DNA from: Allacma fusca | Taxonomy: Eukaryota; Arthropoda; Collembola; Symphypleona; Sminthuridae | DNA: 64,000 bases | Direction: 5' to 3' | Assembly (NCBI GenBank): GCA_947179485.1 | Contig: OX359248.1 | Span: 32,559,378 to 32,623,377, forward strand | In this document: piece by piece, positions 9,001 through 56,807 of the stretch | How positions within the stretch are numbered: the first letter of the stretch is position 1 | How the letters are laid out: every line of letters starts with the position of its first letter | Program-made: the position numbers and the translations under genes | The notes under the pieces: generated by a model | Told to the model about the DNA's origin: nothing | Database searches by the model: none | Seen by the model: the letters and a program-made list of their open reading frames with translations, nothing else

Positions 9001-10219
9001 CCTCCAATCACGTTCGAGCTCGAACACTATCTTCGATGTCCGTTTCCTCTGTCAATACCTTTTTGAGTGAAGCAACAATTAACGAAGCTGATGAATCGGA
9101 AAATGCAGTAATTATAAGTTCTGGAGTTGCACCTATTTCAGTTTCAGCTCAGAAGCTTAGGAGAGATAAAAAGAAAGCTGAAAAGAAAGCACATACTGAT
9201 GGTGCCACAAAAAATACTAAAGTTGAAAAAGTTAAAGTCGAAGAACAAGAAAAGGTTGATGATCAAGATAAAGACATGCAAGCACAAAAACCAAAACGGG
9301 GTCAGCATGGTAGAAATAAGAAGATCAAGGAAAAATATCGTTTCCAAGATGAAGAAGATCGCGCACAACGAATGATGCTACTTCAAGTAATTAGTTTATT
9401 TAAGTTCTTAGTATACGACATAAAATAATCCTCAGAAAGATGAATATTAATCATAATTAAATTGGAACCTATTTTTAAAACAGGGTAAGGGTGGAGACGG
9501 GACAAGTGGAGGAGGTAAAAAAGGCAAAGGTAAAAGTTCTTCGAACGTAGTGCCATCACCTGCTAAACAAAAACTACCCGTGAAAGACGTATCAGACCCG
9601 TCTACCCCTAAGGCTTCACCCATTTCAGCTGAAGACAATAAAGAGGTCGAAGTTCATGCATCCCCCGAGCCTCTTTTAAATACCGAAAATAATATCCAAA
9701 GTGAACAAAATCCTCCAGATGTGGAGGAACCTGTAGATAATGAAGAAAAGCAAGAAATGCACGCAGAAGAGGAACCAGAGGAGGAAGAAGAGGAAGGAAA
9801 TCAGGAAACGGAAATCAGTCTCCTGAATAGTTTAACAGGTTCGCTGGCCGATTTAAATTTTCAGCCTGCAATCTTGACATGTTGTGGTTTCCATGGAAAA
9901 ACAGGAATAACTTCATATGACTAGATATTCATAAATTAAATCTGCTTTTTCAGGTGCTCCACAAGAAGAGGACGAGTTGTTGTTTGCAGTTCCGGTAGTT
10001 GCTCCCTACTCCACCATGCAAAATTACAAATTCAAAATAAAAATGGTGCCGGGCTCTGCTAAACGAGGAAAAGCTGCCAGATCTGCTCTAGAGTTTTTCT
10101 TGCGTGATAAATCCGCGAACCAAAGAGAAAAAGATTTGTTGAAGTCCGTAAAAGATCAAGACCTTGCGAGAAATTTCCCAGGAAAAGTTAAGATATCAAC
10201 AAGCCATGATAAAAGATAG
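6088..10219 (+). CDS. NEMF: Caliban / NEMF (Rqc2-type ribosome quality control factor)
   Basis: Binds stalled 60S subunits with Listerin, and in the Rqc2 family adds C-terminal tails to stalled nascent chains; a nuclear-export role is also reported for the fly protein. Eleven exons join in frame: 6088-6146, 6255-6403, 6572-7010, 7085-7385, 7479-7765, 7851-8082, 8186-8421, 8531-8813, 8928-9386, 9484-9838 and 9954-10219. They give 1021 aa (human about 1076). Landmarks are an N-terminal NFACT-N block with YLIRL and FEWPKN, a coiled coil at about 317-480 ([13 protein letters not shown] at its end), an NFACT-R block at about 490-625 with HADSHGA and [10 protein letters not shown], a Lys/Glu-rich middle, and NFACT-C at 934-1021 ending PGKVKIS. 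The least certain junction is 8421/8531, which gives a Cys codon where human has a related motif. The gene is intact. Its 3' end faces that of the next gene across about 335 bp. Confidence 0.95.
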
Positions 10220-30221: not shown

Positions 30222-32343
30222 CAAAGCTGGGCAAACTAATTGCATACCTTAAATCCTACATATTTTTAGATTCTTACGTCGAGCCTACATTTTAGCCTAC
30301 ATAAATCACTCCCGAGATTTGACCCTACCTACAATCTACATTCATTACTCCCAAGATTTGTCCCTACCTACAACCGAAATACATCTTTGTCGGAATTGAA
30401 TCATACCTGCAAACTAAAATGATATTATGCATGCATAAATTGAAGCCTACAAGTAATTTACAATGCTCTTACTTTAAAAATGCAATGAAAATGAATGTTC
30501 AATCCACCTTATTAAACTTTTGAAAAGTTTCAGATATTGTTTCAGCAATTTTTTATGTTTACTACTCATTAAAAATAAATTTCTGGAACGTGATTTATAA
30601 TTCACTAATTTAAATAATACAAGGGTACTTAACGAACCTTCACATTTTCCTTTATTTTCCCAAAGAAGTACGTATTTATATTTTCTCACGCGTACAAAAT
30701 AATATATGAAGAAGAATATATAAAATGCATTTATCTACGGAATCATTTTTTTACGTACGAGATGCCGGGTGATACGTGGTTTCCAACCTTAATGCTTATC
30801 GTAAATAAGGTAAGGCTTCTTTCTTTTACATGCTTCATGCAGGAATTTAATTTAACCTTGTGTCCCACCATCAGTAGAATCAACTATTAAGTAATATTTT
30901 TAAAAATCCTCTCTTATTTCGAAGCTTATATACATCTTAGATAATAAATTCACACACTGATTCTCATGTTGAAATATCTTTTCCCTGTAACACGTTATCT
31001 GTATTTCGGAGGGGAAGTAAAATAACATATGTGAAAGAAAATCTAGGCGGGGCTTTTATGCCGGATTTAGACTAGGACGAATCAGAATCAGAATTCGAAT
31101 CAGAATCGGATTTCGAATTCACCAAACACGAAGAGTATAAATGCAGAACCTGTTGCCGTAATTCGAATCAGAATCAGAATCAGTTTCAGATTTGTTGCAT
31201 CAGATTTTCATCCTTAAAGTCTAAATGAACATCAGAATTCTGACACTTATCAGATTCTTAAAATAATGAAAGAGGTTTAGACTTCCACAATTCGAATTCT
31301 AAATTTTTGAAATACATCCTTGAAAGCACGAATTACAATATGGGTGGCAACAAAGTCTTGTCCGGGTGAGATTTGTTGATTATTGTTGAAGTTTAAAATT
31401 TAATGAAAACATCTACCAGCCTGGACTTAATTGAGCACTTTATGTTTCGCCGAAATTTATAGAAATAGAAATAAAAAATTGTAGGTAAAAATGTATACCT
31501 GTTGTGTTCGGATTCTTTTGAACCCAGTTGGCAACGTCTTTCCAGGCTTCAAGTTTAGCTGCTGTATTTTTAAAAATCGTGTGTTTCTTTTTCAAACTAC
31601 AATGGCCATTTTTGGATTTACTCCAATAAATATAATTCGAATTGTAATGAATTTGCATGAACTGAAACTATGAAATAGTAGATATGAGAGCGGTATGAAA
31701 TGTTCCAACACACAATGGCGGACAAAGAAAATAAAAATTATGAGCAAAAATTTTACTCCGATCACTGTAATTCAATGATTCACACCGTACTCTATGGGTT
31801 TGTCAGAATTCTCAAATCTGAAAACTTGACTCCGAGTCAACTCTTCAGAATCTTAAGAATTCCATGATTCCGATTCTGATTCTGAAAACTCTAAAAGGTG
31901 AATTCTGATTCTGATTCGAATTCTGAATCTGATTCCGAATCTTATCAAAAAGTATAAATGCCTTTAAGAATTTAAAAATTTCAGATTCTTAAGATTTCCA
32001 GAATTCTGATTCTGATTCGAATTCTGAATCTTAAGTCTAAATACAAATTCTGACGTGTAACCTGAAGCAAACCTGATTCTGATTCGTCCTAGTCTAAATC
32101 CGGCATTATTCAGCACTTTGGAATACCAAAGGTTCGAACATACATACCTACGTTTTCAAGCTTAAGTACCTACCTTTTTGGTATCGACGTACTGATTATT
32201 CCTGGAAAACATATTGCAGAATGTTTCCCTCGAAATATGTAGCGTACATACGTACAATTGCTTACAAAATATTTGAAAAGTTGAGCATAATCTACAATTT
32301 TGCCTACTCGTAGGCTCACATTTAGGGTATGCGCCCAGCTTTG
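30222..32343. mobile_element. hAT-like element with CAAAGCTGGGC ends, holding a nested MITE
   Basis: Left end CAAAGCTGGGCAAAC at 30222; right end GCGCCCAGCTTTG ending at 32343. Perfect 8-bp target duplication ATTGCAAG at 30214-30221 and 32344-32351. The ends match the larger element at 45857-51513, so both belong to one family. Subterminal CCTACAT/CCTACCTAC motifs repeat at the left. The element is non-autonomous. About half its length is a later Harbinger-type insertion (31059-32105). Confidence 0.9.
31059..32105. mobile_element. PIF/Harbinger-type MITE
   Basis: 1.05 kb. The ends are inverted over about 33 bp: TGCCGGATTTAGACTAGG at the left, and the same inverted at the right. It is flanked by the 3-bp duplication TTA (31056-31058 and 32106-32108), the hallmark of the PIF/Harbinger superfamily. 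Both arms are filled with GAATCAGAATTC-like units that can pair. A minus-strand open frame (31440-31658, KNTAAKLEAWKDVA) looks like a remnant of a SANT/MADF-type Harbinger accessory protein. Its ends differ from those of the intact Harbinger at 53633. Confidence 0.85.
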
Positions 32344-45848: not shown

Positions 45849-45928
45849 CTTCTGTCCAAAGCTGGGCAAAAAGTTTGCGTATCCTAAATCCTACATACAT
45901 TTTATAGTTTACGAAGAGCATACATTTT

Positions 45929-46025
45929 GCATACATAAATTTGTCCAGAAATGCAATCATACATATATGCATACATAAATTTGTCCCGAAATGCAATCAT
46001 ACATATATGCATACATAAATTTGTC
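45929..46025. repeat. Short tandem units of about 49 bp
   Basis: The block GCATACATAAATTTGTCC(C/A)GAAATGCAATCATACATATAT recurs at least twice almost exactly (about 45930 and 45979) with a third diverged copy. It forms part of the left subterminal region of the hAT-like element. Confidence 0.75.
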
Positions 46026-47403
46026 CCGAAATGTAATCATACATATATTCATCATATAAATAAATTTATGCATAAATATATGTACACGTGCCTATAAAAG
46101 TGCATGTAGAACGTTCTGAACCTTTATATAAACTAATGAAGCATGGCTTCGCGCGTGTATATTGTTAATTAGTTAAGTTTAAAATTATTAATTTCTAGTT
46201 TCGTAGGTTTTAGTCACAACGTATAGAAATCGTTTGCATTGCAGCAGGAAATAATAAATGCGAAAATACTAATAAACACAGACCGTGCCAAGAAAATACA
46301 GATGGAGCTCACTGAACATACACGGTGCATACATAATACATAAAAAATCTCTCCGCCCACACCATGGAGTTAGTATCTTGTAGTACGTAGTATTGTTAGG
46401 TTAAGATGAATTAAGTATGTTTTTCCATACAATAATTTAAGGATCATTTTAAAGTACATTTTAGCCTGCGAGCTAAATCATTAAAATTTATTATTTGCTG
46501 ACTGTATCCAGTCAGCGGCCTTGGTAACTTCCGTTACCCATTTCTTATGTATGTATTAATTTTAGAAATCAGCGATCATTAGGACTAGTGTATCTAGTCC
46601 AGAAGATTTGTAAGAATGTATTTTTAGTCTTGTTCTGGTCTTCGGATCAACCCAATCAATCTTTTAATCTTTCTTTAATTTCCTTTCAGTTTCTTTTGAT
46701 TTCATAAATAAATCACTTTCAATTTTAATCTTCTCATTATTCACAGATCAACTTCAATGGTTTAATTTATTTGTTGGCTTATCATTTTGATTCTCATAAA
46801 TAATTAATAGACTTTCATATTTATTTAATATTCATACATTTTGACATCCGTACTTGTCTCATATTGATACACGCCAACATAAACCAAAAGTATCATACGC
46901 AATTTTGAATTCGCGGGTAAACAGAAGGATACTACTGCGCCATACACCATGCAATTGGAAATGCATGTAAATGTGAATGATACGACAGTGTACTAAAACG
47001 TTGTGCATGAAGGCAATCCACAACCCTATAGCAAGTGCGTGTATACTTCATAATACAAACTTATGCTTTAAACGGTCATGCTAATTATGATATTACATTG
47101 CATGACGACGCATTCCAGCATTCTTTCATACGCAAGAGTACAAATAAATACTCCATCCCGGGTATAGTTAACTTTTCACGAAGAAACATCGTTAAGACGC
47201 AGTGTGCTATAATTTCACTCCAGTGAGGCATTACTTGTTTCACAAAGGTGGAAACTGCGGGAATTAAATTGTATTCTTCAGCATTTAAGGATTAAATTCA
47301 TAGTCGAAAATTTTAAATTCAACTTTAGGTTTCGCAAGTGATAATGAACTACAATATTGTGTCAGTTTCATCCTTGTTAGTATTAACTTAGTTTGAAAGA
47401 TCT

Positions 47404-47425
47404 TACAACACACATGTGTGTTGTA
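47404..47425. repeat. Palindrome copy 1
   Basis: Core AACACACATGTGTGTT, extended by matching TAC/GTA arms to 22 bp. Lies upstream of the exonuclease-like gene, perhaps in a 5' UTR intron. Confidence 0.9.
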
Positions 47426-48014
47426 ATTAGGTGGACGAACTAAGATTGGTCTGTACAAAAGCGTCCATCATTTTCTTAAGGTGAGTTGTGTACACTTAAA
47501 AATTACACTAATTAATTTGTAAAACATCAAATTCCGGTTCTGTGATCCGTACAATGAATATTAATGGAAATATTCACAACTACTTTGTAATTCCAGGATG
47601 AAGAAAAAAGAACCTTTCCACCTACGTGAAGCACGGGCAGAATTAATTTTCGGAACTACCCGGGAACGCCCACAAGAAACTGACAAGGACTTTTTAAGGA
47701 ACAGAAGACGTGGGTTATACTCTAACCAAACGGTGAGGCACTCCAATCCCTTGGGCGTCCTTGAATGGGAATTCGATGCCGATCATCTTAAGCCTCAGTG
47801 TGGTGATGCAATGAATATTAAAAATCCTGCACTATTTGTGAATAACTCGGAAACAATGAACCAAATGATTCAAACTCTTAAACAAGCCCACACGTTAGGA
47901 CTGGACTTAGAAAGTCATTACAAGTACTCCTTCGGAAGTAAGTACCTTTCGAATTCTTATGACGAGAGTTCCTGATTTATTCCAAAATTATTCCTGATGA
48001 GTTGTTTGAAGTTC

Positions 48015-48042
48015 AAGTATAACACACATGTGTGTTATACTT
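48015..48042. repeat. Palindrome copy 2 (intron 1 of exonuclease gene)
   Basis: Same 16-bp core; arms AAGTAT/ATACTT extend perfect self-complementarity to 28 bp. Lies within intron 47938-48075. Confidence 0.92.
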
Positions 48043-48564
48043 TCAATGTGACAAACATAAATATTAATCTTCCAGATATGATTTCGTTAATTCAAATTTC
48101 AACTCACACGGCTGACTACCTACTGGACCCATTCAAAACTTACGATGAGATAATAAGTGATCTTCGCAAAGTCTTGGAAGACCCGAAGAAATTATTGGTT
48201 GTTCACGGGGCCGCAAAAGATTTAATTTGGCTGAAAGGGGAATTAGGTATTTGTCCCAAAGGAGTAATTGATGTTCAAATATATGACATGCTAGAGACAG
48301 GGACAAAACAGGGCATATCGTTTGATCGCCTTCGTGAAAAATACATTCACGGTAATGCATGTGTGAACAAGAAAGTGACTGACAAATCAATATGTCAGTT
48401 AGCAGATTGGCGCCTCCGGCCGCTGCCCAAGGATCTTCAAATTTATGCCTAAGAAGATAGCCACTATGTTCTCAAAATTTGGAATGAAATCCTGAAGCAG
48501 GTATGATAAATATTTGTTTATAAGCCTGCCATGTTTTGATGAAATTTCTCATGAATAACTCATG

Positions 48565-48598
48565 TTGAACTACAACACACATGTGTGTTATAGTTCAA
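48565..48598. repeat. Palindrome copy 3 (intron 2 of exonuclease gene)
   Basis: Same core; arms beginning TTGAACTA and ending TAGTTCAA make a 34-bp palindrome with one mismatch pair. Lies within intron 48501-48627. Confidence 0.92.
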
Positions 48599-48897
48599 AA
48601 TTTAAAATCTTTAAATATCATTTTCAGGGAAAGACGGATCTCATCAAAGCTGCTGTACATCAAACTAAAAACTTGCTCCTCAAAGAATACAGTCCTCCAA
48701 ATTGTCGTTGTCGATTTCCGTGCTTTCCGCTTATTCATGCTTACTCTATAATCTCCTGTTGCGGCAAAGTTTAAAACACGCGGGATGCGCTACGATTTAC
48801 TTTCAAGCCATGACTCCAACAGGCATTTGCCTAGTATAGTGACTAGTTTAAATCTCAAGTAATTTTTTTGCATTTAGTCATCTCATTGAAAGTTGCC

Positions 48898-50430
48898 ATG
48901 GCAACGTCAAATACTCAACAGGGAACAAATCAAATACCACAAAATAATGTTATTCAATTAGTCTCTCTACAAACTGTTTCAGAGTTAACTCAGGGGCACC
49001 GTCAACAGGTAAATTTAATTCATGTTACAATAGCTACCTTCTGAGTGAAGTCCCTGTTACAAGTTATTGCATTGTGGATTTTTTAAAGGTCGAGGGTGCT
49101 ATATTTCAGCTTGGAGAATGTCTTGTTTCGGAAATTAATAAGGTAAACTGTACTATGAATTATACATTTCTTCTGAAATTTAAATCAACGTAATTATTTA
49201 ATATTTTGATAGTGTGTTTCAAGCTTAAAAGAAACTGTTCATTCTTCACACGTGGTGGATAGTGCTCAGGTAAAAATAGTACAAAGTATTCTACATGTAT
49301 AAGTAATAACACACATGTGTGTTATTAGGTTGGTACAAAATTACTTGCGCAATGTTTGGTTTCAGGGCGTACCGGTGGAGACATTTATGTCGGAAATCCA
49401 ACGTTTGGACCATAAATTGGACTCAGTACAATCCGGTAATAACATTCAGGATGCTTTATACTTTCACCCATATCATCTCATCTTGTAGCTAAATTCATTT
49501 TGTGTACATGATTATATATAAATATTCGTTTCTGTAAAAAAAATATTCTTACAGAAATCACTTCAATGCGGTCATTGTTATGCAATGTTCATGAAGACGT
49601 ACGTCGGTACATTACTCCTACGAACGAGGGATCGACACCTGGAGAATGGCGCAACAGTGACTCAGCTATTGCCGACCAGCACAGCCAGATTTTAATCGAG
49701 GTAATGATCCTTTGTTCTGCTAAGCGACTGCAGGTATACAATTTTACACATGTTACTCTTATTGCTTTCACAGCCATTTGTTAGTGTTCAACATGATGGA
49801 GAGGAGCATCAACTGCGTCTGAGCAAAGTAACTCGGGATGCTTTACTGGGTTGTCGGGTTTTACGAGAGGTCGTTCGAAGAATTCTGCTTCATTTTCACT
49901 CTATTTCTGATCTTCGAAAGTTTACTCTAACTGGTCATACGTAAGTTATCATTTTGAATTAACCATAGTTAGGGTTGGTTCAACACACATGTGTGTTGGA
50001 CACATTTTTAGTTTATTATTGTTTCAATGTATTTGTCTTTTAGGTGCGACGCCAAAGAGGGGACTAAAGATCCCAAGGAACAACTTCCACCGTTACACGT
50101 CAAATTTTCACAAGGTGACTGCTAGCTGTTTGCTACTAAATGTTTATGTATTCAATTTTTTGATGATACAATATTCTTTCAGCTGTCGTTCTCCGACTTT
50201 TTCCTGTAAATGATAAGCTGCAACAGATTACAAATGATGATGGCACAACGGCTTATGATGAAAAAATTCAAAACCTTAAAACAGACACGAGGAAAGCGAT
50301 TACATCCATTTTGGAATATTACTCTTCAAACTACGATTCTGAAGGTCGAAGGATTCGAAAATTTGGGCAGAAGCGCAAACCCACTCAAGAGGAAGACCGT
50401 GTTATCTCTCCTGCTAGTATTGAAGGTTAA
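48898..50430 (+). CDS. Unrecognised 307-aa protein, possible BEN-like C-terminal half
   Basis: Eight exons join in frame, all GT-AG: 48898-49008, 49089-49142, 49213-49269, 49366-49435, 49555-49700, 49774-49940, 50044-50114 and 50183-50430. No stop interrupts, and the ATG lies in a good context (GCCATGG). Residues 1-100 are Gln-rich then heptad-like (coiled coil). About 120-146 is polar. Residues 165-235 are helix-rich: LREVVRRILLHFHSISDL, then RKFTLTGHT and a Pro/Leu patch. This order (helix, L-F-x-x-x-E/D-L, 'S/T-L-T/S-G', basic linker, 'P-x-L') recalls the BEN DNA/protein-binding domain, but the match is only by eye. The C-terminus is charged and basic. The intact frame across seven introns argues for recent or current selection. 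Function unknown. Confidence 0.7.
49304..49327. repeat. Palindrome copy 4 (intron of the 307-aa gene)
   Basis: Same core with TAAT/ATTA arms, 24 bp perfect. Lies within intron 49270-49365. Confidence 0.92.
49981..49998. repeat. Palindrome copy 5 (intron of the 307-aa gene)
   Basis: Same core with C/G arms, 18 bp perfect. Lies within intron 49941-50043. Confidence 0.9.
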
Positions 50431-50452
50431 TGTTCTTATTTCAATCTCGGTT

Positions 50453-50478
50453 TTACAACACACATGTGTGTTTTAAAA
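50453..50478. repeat. Palindrome copy 6 (just 3' of the 307-aa gene)
   Basis: Same core with TTTAC/TTAAA arms (one mismatched pair). Begins 23 bp after the stop codon, in the 3' UTR or in an unrecognised last intron (GTTAATG lies at the end of the frame). Confidence 0.88.
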
Positions 50479-51052
50479 CAAATTAATTGTAACCATTATG
50501 AATACAAAAATATTTCGGATACTTTCGTTTGATAATACAATTTATGCAAAAGTATACTACAATGTGTCATTTTGTTATACCCTTGTGCAGTAGCATGCTT
50601 TTATACAATTATTAGAAGGCACACTTTGATATCGTTAATTATGTCATGACACAGCATACGTAATTCAGGCATACATAAGCATTTCTTTTAAGTGGTCAAT
50701 AAAATAGAGTTGGGAGGTATACTAAGTATTTGTATGTTCGAGCACTAGGAGCGGTGATACAAAGTGAAGCGTTGAATCATACGTAGGAATGTGCTAATAG
50801 ATGACAAATTCTTGTATAAGCTTCTGCGCAGACTCCGGCGAGCAGCATACTCGCAGGGATCAGGAGTTGCAATGATGTTGAATGCAAGGTGTCCGTCATG
50901 ACACGAATACCAACTATTGCCGTTTGGTATACTAACTCCTTAAATTGTAGTATGCCGACACCGGGTACCAACACATAATAACCCCATGGTGTGGGCGGCC
51001 TTTTAAACATACATACTCGTAAATACAGTATTCATACCATACATATATCATA

Positions 51053-51389
51053 CTGTCGAGTCAAGCCAGACTGATGCTTTACCAATTAAGGACAGGTGTG
51101 TTACGCACGCCTCTCTTGCCTGCGATTGGCCGATAATTTTTCATGCGTTTCAGCGCGAAATAAAAGGATGTATGCATATGCAATGTAAATATCTTGCAAC
51201 ATGATTACGAAATTGAAACTCGATGGTTCACTCACTCATTACAAATACAGAGTTAATCTATGGTTGACAAGTAAACGATGGTTGACAGTCACTCTATGGT
51301 AACTAGCATAAGCCTATCGGAGGCAAGAGAGGCGTGCGTAACACACCTGCCCTTAATTGGTAAAGTATCAGCCTGGCTTGACTCGACAG
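51053..51389. mobile_element. TA-flanked MITE (Tc1/mariner-like)
   Basis: Two arms of about 80 bp pair at roughly 90 percent. The left starts CTGTCGAGTCAAGCC and the right ends GGCTTGACTCGACAG. Both are flanked by TA (51051-51052, 51390-51391), as for Tc1/mariner insertions. 337 bp, no coding capacity. It lies inside the large hAT-like element near its right end. Confidence 0.85.
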
Positions 51390-51521
51390 TACATTTTTTT
51401 TAGTGGAAACACGCAGCCTACATAAAATACATACAAATATTCGGAAAATGTGCGACCATACATAAAAAACTGCGTATATGTATGCATAAATGTAGGATAT
51501 GTGCCCAGCTTTGCTTCTGTC

Positions 51522-55238: not shown

Positions 55239-56807
55239 TTACCCTTCGAAGTCTTCCCAGGGTTGTGCTTGATTACTGAAAATGTTCATCAAGGTGTTTC
55301 GCAGGTTTTCTCCTGAGGATTGTACAAGTGTACATTGTGGGTTTGGTTGAGGATGACGATTTTCGTATAATTGTGCAGTTTCTCTGTCCTGAGCTGTCAG
55401 AATAACATTTATTCCGTGCTGTTCACAAAGATTGTGCAAAGCCACTGCTGCAATAATTACTTTATGAGCATCTTTGTACAACACGTCGATTCCACGATAC
55501 AGCCTTCTCCACCTACTTTTTAACCTTCCGAAAAAGTTTTCAACGGACCTTCTGGCTCGGGACAGTCGATAGTTGAATATTTTGCGTGGTCTTGTCATTT
55601 CAGAATGGTGTGTGAACGGTTTCATTAACCATGGCTCTAAAGAAAATCCCGAATCTCCAAGAAGAACCAAAGGTATTGGATTTCCTGCAACAAGTTGAAC
55701 CTTATAGTAACCATTTAATTTTTTAATCAATTCTCGTAATAATGTTTAAACTTTCCCAATAAAATCACTTCACCTTGGATGTCTTTTATTACATTTGGAA
55801 TTGCGCCGTCACGTATTTTGTAAAATAGTGTGCTTTCTTTGAAAGCCCCTGAATCCGACTGTCTACCAGGTATTCCAGTTTTTGCCCAAATGGCTCTTCC
55901 TCTTGCGTCCACAATTGCCAGTAACATTATAGACTTCCACCCTTTATAATTGTAGAAGTCCGACGCCAAACGAGATGGAGGACTAAATGCAATGTGACTA
56001 CCGTCGATTGATCCAAACGCCATCGGAAACTGCCATAACCTCTCGTTCTCATCTGCAAGTGCGATGAACTCATCTGAAGTTTTTGGAAATTTGATCAGCT
56101 TCCTTGCAAGTACCGAATACACCGCGTTAATAAAATCTTTAAAGCACTGATGAGCGGTACTTCGTCCAATCCCAAAGAGAGATGCAACCGTTAGATAATC
56201 ACAAGTGGTGGCAAGTAATTTTAAACCAACAGCAACTTTTTTCCTCACAGGTAATGCATCTCTCCACGATGTATCCTGTAATTAGGAAATTAGAGTTAGG
56301 TATTATCTGAGTAATCCTCAGACTACAGTAAATTATGATACGCCCAAACTGTATTAGTATGACTAAAATAATACCTCTTTGTACAAGGAAATACCCAGCT
56401 CAGCCACTAAATAATCGAAAATCTGAAAATTGACTCTGAAGTGCTGGATAAATAGTTTCTCTGGGAACAGCGGAACTTTATGATCCCACCAATCAGTAGA
56501 TGAAGGATATCTCCAGATAACGCGAAATCTGAAAATCATCAGATGCGGTGTAATAAACCTGAATTAAGGCTTAACCCACGATGGAATCAATTGATTTTTT
56601 AAATGTAATAATGAAAACTAAATAGATCACATACTTTGTCTGAGCTTGCAGCCACTCCAATATTTTCAAATATTCTTCAGTGCTTGCATCTTCTTCGTCA
56701 AGTGTTCGCAATAATTGATTATTTAATTGAACCTGATTCAGCATAATTGTCTTTATTTGGCTTTGGTTTTGCCAAAAAACCTTTCTACAAATTGTTTGCA
56801 ATTCCAT
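55239..56807 (-). CDS. PIF/Harbinger DDE transposase (HARBI1-like)
   Basis: Four exons join in frame: 56807-56635, 56528-56375, 56275-55774 and 55684-55239, giving 424 aa. A helix-turn-helix-like part (TCDYLTVASLFGIGRSTAH) precedes the catalytic core. Core acids are D200 in FGSIDGSHIAF, D287 in LLGDSGFSLEPWLMKPF and E325 in ARRSVENFFGRLKSRW. These are the three DDE motifs of the family, also kept in the domesticated host protein HARBI1. The presence of element ends and target duplication 0.2-1.7 kb away shows it is a transposon gene, not a host HARBI1. The intron at 55773-55685 fixes an apparent frame break between the two long open frames. No inactivating change was found. Confidence 0.93.

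What the first reader, a model, noticed from the sequence alone, without database searches (positions are those of the whole stretch)
45857..51513. hAT-like transposon carrying an Rrp6-type exonuclease and an unknown intact gene
Seen: matching ends (CAAAGCTGGGC / GCCCAGCTTTG) and a perfect 8-bp duplication CTTCTGTC enclose 5.66 kb with two intron-bearing genes and no transposase. A smaller relative with the same ends is at 30222-32343. Known: Pack-MULE-like and hAT elements can capture host genes with introns. Inference: this unit mobilised an exosome-type nuclease plus a partner protein. The nuclease could once have served against small-RNA silencing of the element, or be a passenger.
Basis: partly seen in the sequence, partly recalled or inferred. 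Interest (0 to 1): 0.85.

Follow-up and report, generated by a model that had tools for sequence, protein, structure and literature searches.

The report
Nested transposon with self-marking palindrome sites
The two genes are not cargo of the outer transposon but belong to a second jumping gene nested inside it, one that carries many copies of a short mirror-image DNA sequence which may let a protein of the element recognise its own copies.

Summary
The ends and the 8-bp duplication are real, but the unit is a nest. The outer hAT-like element (45857-51513) carries, at 46356-50995, a different transposon with ends CCCACACCATGG and a 2-bp duplication (CG); another hAT copy in the genome has the matching empty site. 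The assembly is almost certainly the springtail Allacma fusca. Full-length relatives (8.8-10.7 kb) have exonuclease(+), transposase(-) and companion gene(+); two of them differ at 3 of 8759 aligned bases. The window copy lacks 4.6 kb including the transposase, and its exonuclease has an in-frame stop. The core is fixed; flanking arms differ between sites yet stay self-complementary. Some related elements carry other palindromes; others carry none. Best reading: dispersed recognition sites for an element-encoded protein, with arms at least partly made by fold-back copying. No binding or expression was tested, and no binder is identified. RNA hairpins remain a serious rival. My BEN-domain idea for the companion protein failed its tests.

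The parts
45857..51513 (.). Outer hAT-like element, ends CAAAGCTGGGC/GCCCAGCTTTG, flanked by CTTCTGTC at 45849-45856 and 51514-51521
46356..50995 (+). Inner EnSpm-like transposon, internally deleted copy; ends CCCACACCATGG/CCATGGTGTGGG; 2-bp duplication CG (46354-46355, 50996-50997)
   Evidence: empty site in another hAT copy
46394..46888 (.). 495-bp further insert in the inner element, with direct repeat AGTAT at both edges
   Evidence: absent from C12_21, C10_35 and C8_63 at this point
47598..48774 (+). Rrp6-like exonuclease gene, exons 47598-47937, 48076-48500, 48628-48774; in-frame stop 48450-48452
48701..48702 (.). Point where 4.6 kb (end of the exonuclease gene and the whole transposase) is missing compared with full-length copies
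48898..50430 (+). Companion gene, 307 codons, exons 48898-49008, 49089-49142, 49213-49269, 49366-49435, 49555-49700, 49774-49940, 50044-50114, 50183-50430; no known domain found
47407..47422 (.). Palindrome AACACACATGTGTGTT, site 1, upstream of the exonuclease start codon
48021..48036 (.). Palindrome site 2, intron of the exonuclease
48574..48589 (.). Palindrome site 3, intron of the exonuclease
49308..49323 (.). Palindrome site 4, intron of the companion gene
49982..49997 (.). Palindrome site 5, intron of the companion gene
50457..50472 (.). Palindrome site 6, 26 bases after the companion stop codon
51051..51391 (.). Fold-back (arms of 80 nt, 94% complementary) in the right hAT flank, probably a further insert

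Best explanation
SHOWN: the two genes belong to an EnSpm/tnp2-like DNA transposon nested in a hAT-like element. Full-length copies carry exonuclease, transposase and companion gene as one unit, have 2-bp target duplications and include near-identical pairs, so movement was recent. Copies of this family carry the 16-bp palindrome AACACACATGTGTGTT several times each, mostly in introns and beside stop codons, and every exact occurrence in the genome lies in a family copy. INFERRED: the palindromes are recognition sites for an element-encoded nucleic-acid-binding protein (first candidate the companion protein, second the exonuclease with its CCHC-like motif). Occupancy along the element lets the protein pick out its own copies and keep them expressed, as the plant anti-silencing protein VANC does. 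Some related elements use other palindromes, so site and reader may have diverged together. The variable self-complementary arms are probably built at least partly by fold-back template switching on the palindromic core and may add hairpin structure. The exonuclease may trim 3' DNA ends in transposition, as authors propose for Dada and KolobokD elements, or act on silencing RNA; this is undetermined.
For: Own ends and 2-bp duplications in 7 of the 7 loci that have both ends; 4 more lack one exact end in the stretch held. Empty site in another hAT copy. Palindrome: 6 in the window against 0.03 expected with up to 2 mismatches; 60 in the genome against 1 for the reversed control; 54 in the ten fetched loci plus 6 in the window. 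Those loci were chosen for the palindrome; a check that does not choose for it: exact end patterns mark 10 loci, of which 9 hold the palindrome, the exception being a lone end at C10:52776315. Core kept at 16 of 16 bases while alignable DNA of the subfamilies is about 66-69% identical. Other palindromes in relatives: AACAAACTAGTTTGTT, 7 in the genome, 5 in L045 and 1 in its relative C8_37; CTCTAGTG hairpins, 46 places, 36 of them in four similar elements. Fold-back copying. Plant precedent.
Against: No binding, methylation or expression data. The companion protein has no recognised DNA-binding domain. A pure DNA-binding site does not need complementary arms. One exact core lies in an open transposase frame of C10_33. 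Not every intron has a site: 4 of the 9 coding introns in the window do. Relatives with transposase and companion gene but no palindrome set exist (C8_9, C1_61), as does an exonuclease locus without one in 3 kb (L048). Reader and site changing together was not tested on a tree.
Confidence: 0.48

Rival explanations
1. RNA-level hairpins: the palindromes act in pre-mRNA as stem-loops that control splicing, nuclear retention or decay, perhaps bound by the element's own exonuclease.
For: Arms covary: 65 two-sided changes against 24.0 in shuffles, score 0.437 against 0.139, 0 of 500 shuffles. Most sites lie in introns or just after stop codons. In L046/L047 an asymmetric loop CTCTAGTG is constant while stems vary. 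Predicted introns of the window fold with the hairpin. The exonuclease has a CCHC-like motif (by eye).
Against: Wobble pairs are not clearly enriched in the transcribed strand: 7 G-U, 4 A-C, 37 other mismatches in 192 cells. The asymmetric site is reversed in the first intron of 3 of the 4 similar elements, which are near-identical and count as one event. Stem bases inside the 16-bp core do not covary, they are fixed. Folding of four site-bearing introns is not outside the shuffles (z -1.51, -1.71, -0.11, -1.66).
Confidence: 0.25
2. The palindromes are cis-sites for the transposase or a transposition complex, like the TnpA sites of Spm, and are needed for mobility.
For: They are kept in the deletion derivatives that moved recently (C8_21, C12_14, C10_52). 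All 6 complete copies marked by the two exact end patterns hold them. The ends share CACAC with the half-site (by eye).
Against: They are spread through the whole element rather than gathered near the ends; the first and last exact cores stand about 400-620 bp from the ends in C12_21, C10_33 and C8_21.
Confidence: 0.17
3. By-product: short palindromes arose and grew by fold-back template switching and have no function.
For: In C8_37 a 70-bp palindrome has a left arm that is an inverted copy of the right arm, while only the right flank aligns with the homologous site of C8_11. Pairing of arms fades to the shuffled level beyond about position 8.
Against: A mutational process does not explain one identical 16-bp core at 60 places, kept where surrounding introns no longer align, nor its restriction to one family.
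Confidence: 0.08
4. One reading: the hAT element captured a host exosome nuclease and a partner gene.
For: hAT-like ends and an 8-bp duplication enclose both genes.
Against: Separate ends and duplication, an empty site in another hAT copy, and full-length copies with no exact hAT end nearby.
Confidence: 0.01

Closest known systems
VANDAL21/VANC21 anti-silencing transposons of Arabidopsis (PMC5735166: outline with abstract, sections 7 and 8 read)
   Same: A short motif (YAGTATTAY there) dispersed in introns, intergenic and terminal non-coding parts of a DNA transposon, highly enriched in one family, with other motifs in related families.
   Different: VANC motifs are not palindromic, lie in dense same-orientation arrays and have a proven binder; here the site is a palindrome with self-complementary arms, the host is an animal and no binder is known.
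EnSpm/CACTA (CMC) transposons, including animal SmTRC1 (PMC1636069: passages seen)
   Same: Transposase with weak tnp2/Transposase_21 and DUF4218 similarity; 2-bp duplication; a second protein gene, as TNPA in Spm.
   Different: Ends begin CCCACACC, not CACTA; extra Rrp6-like exonuclease gene; dispersed palindromes.
Dada and KolobokD transposons with DEDD exonucleases (PMC3706591 and PMC9587614: passages seen)
   Same: A DNA transposon with its own DEDD 3'-5' exonuclease.
   Different: Other transposases and other exonuclease types: DEDDy inside the transposase in two Dada lineages, DEDDh in KolobokD; here a separate Rrp6-like gene.
ISL2EU transposons (recalled, not read)
   Same: 2-bp duplication and an exonuclease gene beside the transposase.
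   Different: YqaJ-type exonuclease and another transposase family.

Membership tests
EnSpm/CACTA (CMC) superfamily | tnp2-type DDE transposase (Pfam Transposase_21, DUF4218) | tested here: inconclusive
   Transposase_21 E 0.035 and 0.008 (13.7 and 15.8 bits, cut-off 28.6) in two relatives; DUF4218 E 1.4e-4 (22.1 bits, cut-off 27) in a third piece; all below cut-off; other pieces scanned had no such match
EnSpm/CACTA (CMC) superfamily | 2-3 bp target duplication | tested here: met
   2 bp in 7 of 7 loci with both ends; CG confirmed by an empty site
EnSpm/CACTA (CMC) superfamily | termini starting CACTA/CACTG (recalled; PMC1636069 listing says CACTA core) | tested here: not met
   ends start CCCACACC; hence called EnSpm-like and not filed as CACTA
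Rrp6/EXOSC10 | DEDD-Y 3'-5' exonuclease domain | tested here: met
   the last motif lies beyond the stop in the window copy
Rrp6/EXOSC10 | HRDC domain after the nuclease domain | tested here: inconclusive
   HRDC E 0.046 in C12_21 and 7.3e-5, 23.1 bits against cut-off 23.8, in L045
Rrp6/EXOSC10 | N-terminal PMC2NT domain (recalled) | tested here: not met
   no such match in the window protein at E up to 1; so Rrp6-like, not an EXOSC10 orthologue
BEN-domain proteins (companion protein) | BEN domain | tested here: not met
   no BEN match in Pfam or PDB profile search; profile comparison with BEN pieces of the same genome probability 0.2, E 0.33
VANC-type anti-silencing system | family-restricted motif dispersed in non-coding parts | tested here: met
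   one core in an open transposase frame
VANC-type anti-silencing system | element-encoded protein binds the motif | not testable with these tools
   needs a binding assay
VANC-type anti-silencing system | binding reverses silencing or methylation | not testable with these tools
   needs expression and methylation data
hAT (outer element) | 8-bp target duplication and conserved terminal repeats | tested here: met
hAT (outer element) | mobilised by a hAT transposase | not tested
   no autonomous copy was looked for

The most novel reading that the evidence does not exclude
An animal DNA transposon lineage carries a self-recognition code: each family has its own hairpin-forming palindrome scattered through its genes, read by a co-evolving element-encoded protein that keeps the element unsilenced. 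The self-complementary arms grow by fold-back copying, and an Rrp6-like exonuclease acts in the same pathway, against silencing RNA or on transposition ends.
Probability: 0.25. Interest if true: 0.87.

Novelty: new variant of a known kind. Interest (0 to 1): 0.62.

Why it matters
If the sites are read by the element's own protein, this would be an animal counterpart of the sequence-specific anti-silencing known from plant transposons, with a palindromic code that differs between related elements. A sequenced springtail offers a small set of nearly identical, recently moved copies in which binding, expression and silencing can be tested. It also adds an Rrp6-like nuclease to the gene sets carried by DNA transposons, and it shows a case where arm covariation, usually read as proof of RNA structure, may come from fold-back copying of DNA.

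Tried and rejected
Capture of host genes by the hAT element: rejected. BEN domain for the companion protein: suggested by eye, then no support; kept as unknown. A fixed distance from palindrome to 3' splice site: about 38-46 bases in the window, but up to about 80 in other copies by my count; rejected. Strict strand orientation of the asymmetric hairpin: contradicted by the reversed intron site. G-U wobble enrichment: not clear. Relatives in viral contigs: none for either protein; six contigs with the palindrome were listed and not followed. Rfam gathering scan of the window: nothing. Literature: the listings of searches showed no title or abstract start on this gene set or palindrome system; only open-licence PMC papers are held and capped lists were shown, so this absence is weak.
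Full report
Host. The window lies at C12:32,559,378-32,623,377 of a 392,743,791-base assembly in 91 contigs. The genome note of the springtail Allacma fusca, qeAllFusc8.1 (PMC10427803, passages seen) gives 392,786,974 bases in 95 scaffolds, six chromosomes and an N50 of 66,084,411, which is exactly the length of C10. C8, C12 and C5 match chromosomes 2, 4 and X1 to the digits printed; the longest scaffold differs by about 4 kb from C1. I take the host as A. fusca and the window as chromosome 4; this is inference from lengths.

Observation. The ends, the 8-bp duplication and the smaller relative are real, and the end sequence belongs to a repeat family. Both genes have GT-AG introns. The first encodes an Rrp6-type exonuclease with an in-frame stop at 48450-48452. 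The second is open for 307 codons and matches no known domain.

Nesting. The palindrome described below led to ten other loci. Homology of the window to the closest of them lies within 46356-50995 and does not reach the hAT ends. At both limits stand CCCACACCATGG and its reverse complement, flanked by a 2-bp repeat. The duplications are CG (window), TA, TA, AA, AT, AT and CT, in 7 of the 7 loci with both ends; C5_44, C8_17, C8_49 and C8_63 lack one exact end in the stretch held. A hAT copy beside the C10:52.95 Mb element reads through the insertion point with a single CG: 203 bp at 94.6%, of which 16 bp lie beyond the junction on the right. That copy has this segment inverted relative to the window copy, so the right flank then continues elsewhere; the junction itself is uninterrupted. 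A 495-bp insert with repeat AGTAT sits inside the inner element, and a fold-back sits in the right hAT flank.

The inner transposon. Copies with both ends and no large deletion are 8768 (C12_21), 8759 (C10_35) and 10714 bp (C10_33). They encode exonuclease(+), transposase(-) and companion(+) in that order. The transposase is weakly tnp2-like, below Pfam cut-offs; because the ends are not CACTA I call it EnSpm-like. C12_21 and C10_35 differ at 3 of 8759 aligned bases, and two deletion derivatives are identical over 4419 bp, so movement was recent. The window copy is 97.2-98.2% identical to C12_21 and lacks 4.6 kb including the transposase. Copies with an open exonuclease exist: exons 1 and 2 read open, exon 3. 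Exon-level matches in the genome number 51 for the exonuclease, 51 for the companion protein and at least 150 for the transposase (150 scored of 789 candidates). L045 has the same gene order with an exonuclease 38% identical over 128 residues.

The palindrome. AACACACATGTGTGTT is present six times in the window, all in the inner element, against 0.03 expected with up to two mismatches. The genome holds 60, reversed control 1: 54 in the ten fetched loci and 6 in the window. The ten loci were chosen for it, so a check by ends was made: exact end patterns of two subfamilies mark 10 loci (16 places), of which 9 hold the palindrome; the tenth is a lone end at C10:52776315. In the window four sites are in introns, one lies upstream of the exonuclease and one lies 26 bases after the companion stop; 5 of 9 coding introns have none. 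Elsewhere most sites are again in introns or beside stop codons by my reading. One exact core lies in an open transposase frame of C10_33, and a 3-mismatch version lies in an open frame of the same gene of C12_21. More distant companion-gene relatives C10_18 and C12_42 have only decayed versions.

Arms. There are 24 distinct sites among 67 with at most one core mismatch in 11 loci. The 8 bases on either side pair in 144 of 192 cells; 2000 shuffles gave mean 72.1 and maximum 96; pairing falls to the shuffled level beyond about position 8. A formal count on the 24 sites gives 65 two-sided changes against 24.0 and a covariation score of 0.437 against 0.139, reached by 0 of 500 shuffles; the number of pairs with a two-sided change, 8 against 7.3, is not unusual. 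Shuffles ignore relatedness, but sliding the partners by 1 to 3 columns lowers the score to 0.080-0.128. In the exonuclease intron that separates the two halves of the nuclease domain, three subfamilies keep the core with different self-complementary arms.

Other codes. L045 carries AACAAACTAGTTTGTT with its own arms. The exact 16-mer occurs 7 times in the genome, reversed control 2: 5 in L045, 1 in its relative C8_37 and 1 at C8:61660826, not read. Exonuclease loci L046 and L047 show hairpins with loop CTCTAGTG (CTCTTGTG in one) and varied stems; the pattern has 31+15 places, controls 3+5, 36 of the 46 in four similar elements. L050 and L044 have further variants. Against a general rule: the transposase-companion loci C8_9 and C1_61 show no such set, no exonuclease was found in them with several queries, and exonuclease loci L048 and L049 have no hairpin in the 3 kb held.

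How the arms may arise. At homologous sites of C8_37 and C8_11 the right flanks align. In C8_37 the left flank is an exact inverted copy of the right, giving a 70-bp palindrome. This is what fold-back template switching would leave. It is one clear case, but it means that covariation of arms need not show selection on a hairpin; the fixed core is the better sign of selection.

Mechanism. A fixed, symmetric, family-restricted core scattered along a transposon, with different cores in related elements, is best explained by a sequence-specific protein of the element. VANC21 of Arabidopsis VANDAL21 does this with YAGTATTAY motifs in introns and intergenic parts, with loss of methylation (PMC5735166). 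No binder is shown here, and my BEN idea for the companion protein failed. RNA hairpins remain possible, but wobble pairs are not clearly enriched, the asymmetric loop is reversed at one intron site and the four site-bearing window introns do not fold outside their shuffles. The exonuclease has precedents in Dada and KolobokD elements, whose authors propose processing of DNA ends (passages).

Conclusion. The unit is a nest, and the capture model fails. What stands is a recently active EnSpm-like transposon lineage with an Rrp6-like nuclease, a companion protein and a family-restricted palindrome whose reader is unknown; I saw no report of it in the listings of searches.

Noticed in passing
window 30222-32343: The smaller hAT-like relative seems to hold a long fold-back of its own (arms near 31060 and 32105 with repeated GATTCTGATTCG motifs), read by eye.
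   Followed up: no
L035/L036 joined, 9130-9199 (C8:37.30 Mb): A 70-bp perfect palindrome in one copy whose left arm is an inverted copy of its right arm: apparent fold-back copying.
   Followed up: partly
L025/L026 (C10:52.95 Mb): One element copy sits inside an array of tandem repeats with a period of about 530 bp.
   Followed up: no
C12:58139742, C12:57617062, C5:4638854, C8:22971501; also C91:3428: Several near-complete COX1 matches on chromosome contigs, read through TGA only: probably nuclear copies of mitochondrial DNA; C91 may be the mitochondrial contig.
   Followed up: no
L046 2485-2680 and C8:31722063-31722358: The CTCTAGTG hairpin is itself repeated in tandem, three copies in L046 and four in the other element, about 92-96 bp apart.
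   Followed up: no
C10:52776315: A lone right end of the inner transposon family without an exact palindrome nearby in the list.
   Followed up: no
window 55239-56281: Two minus-strand open frames that look by eye like pieces of a Harbinger-type nuclease gene.
   Followed up: no
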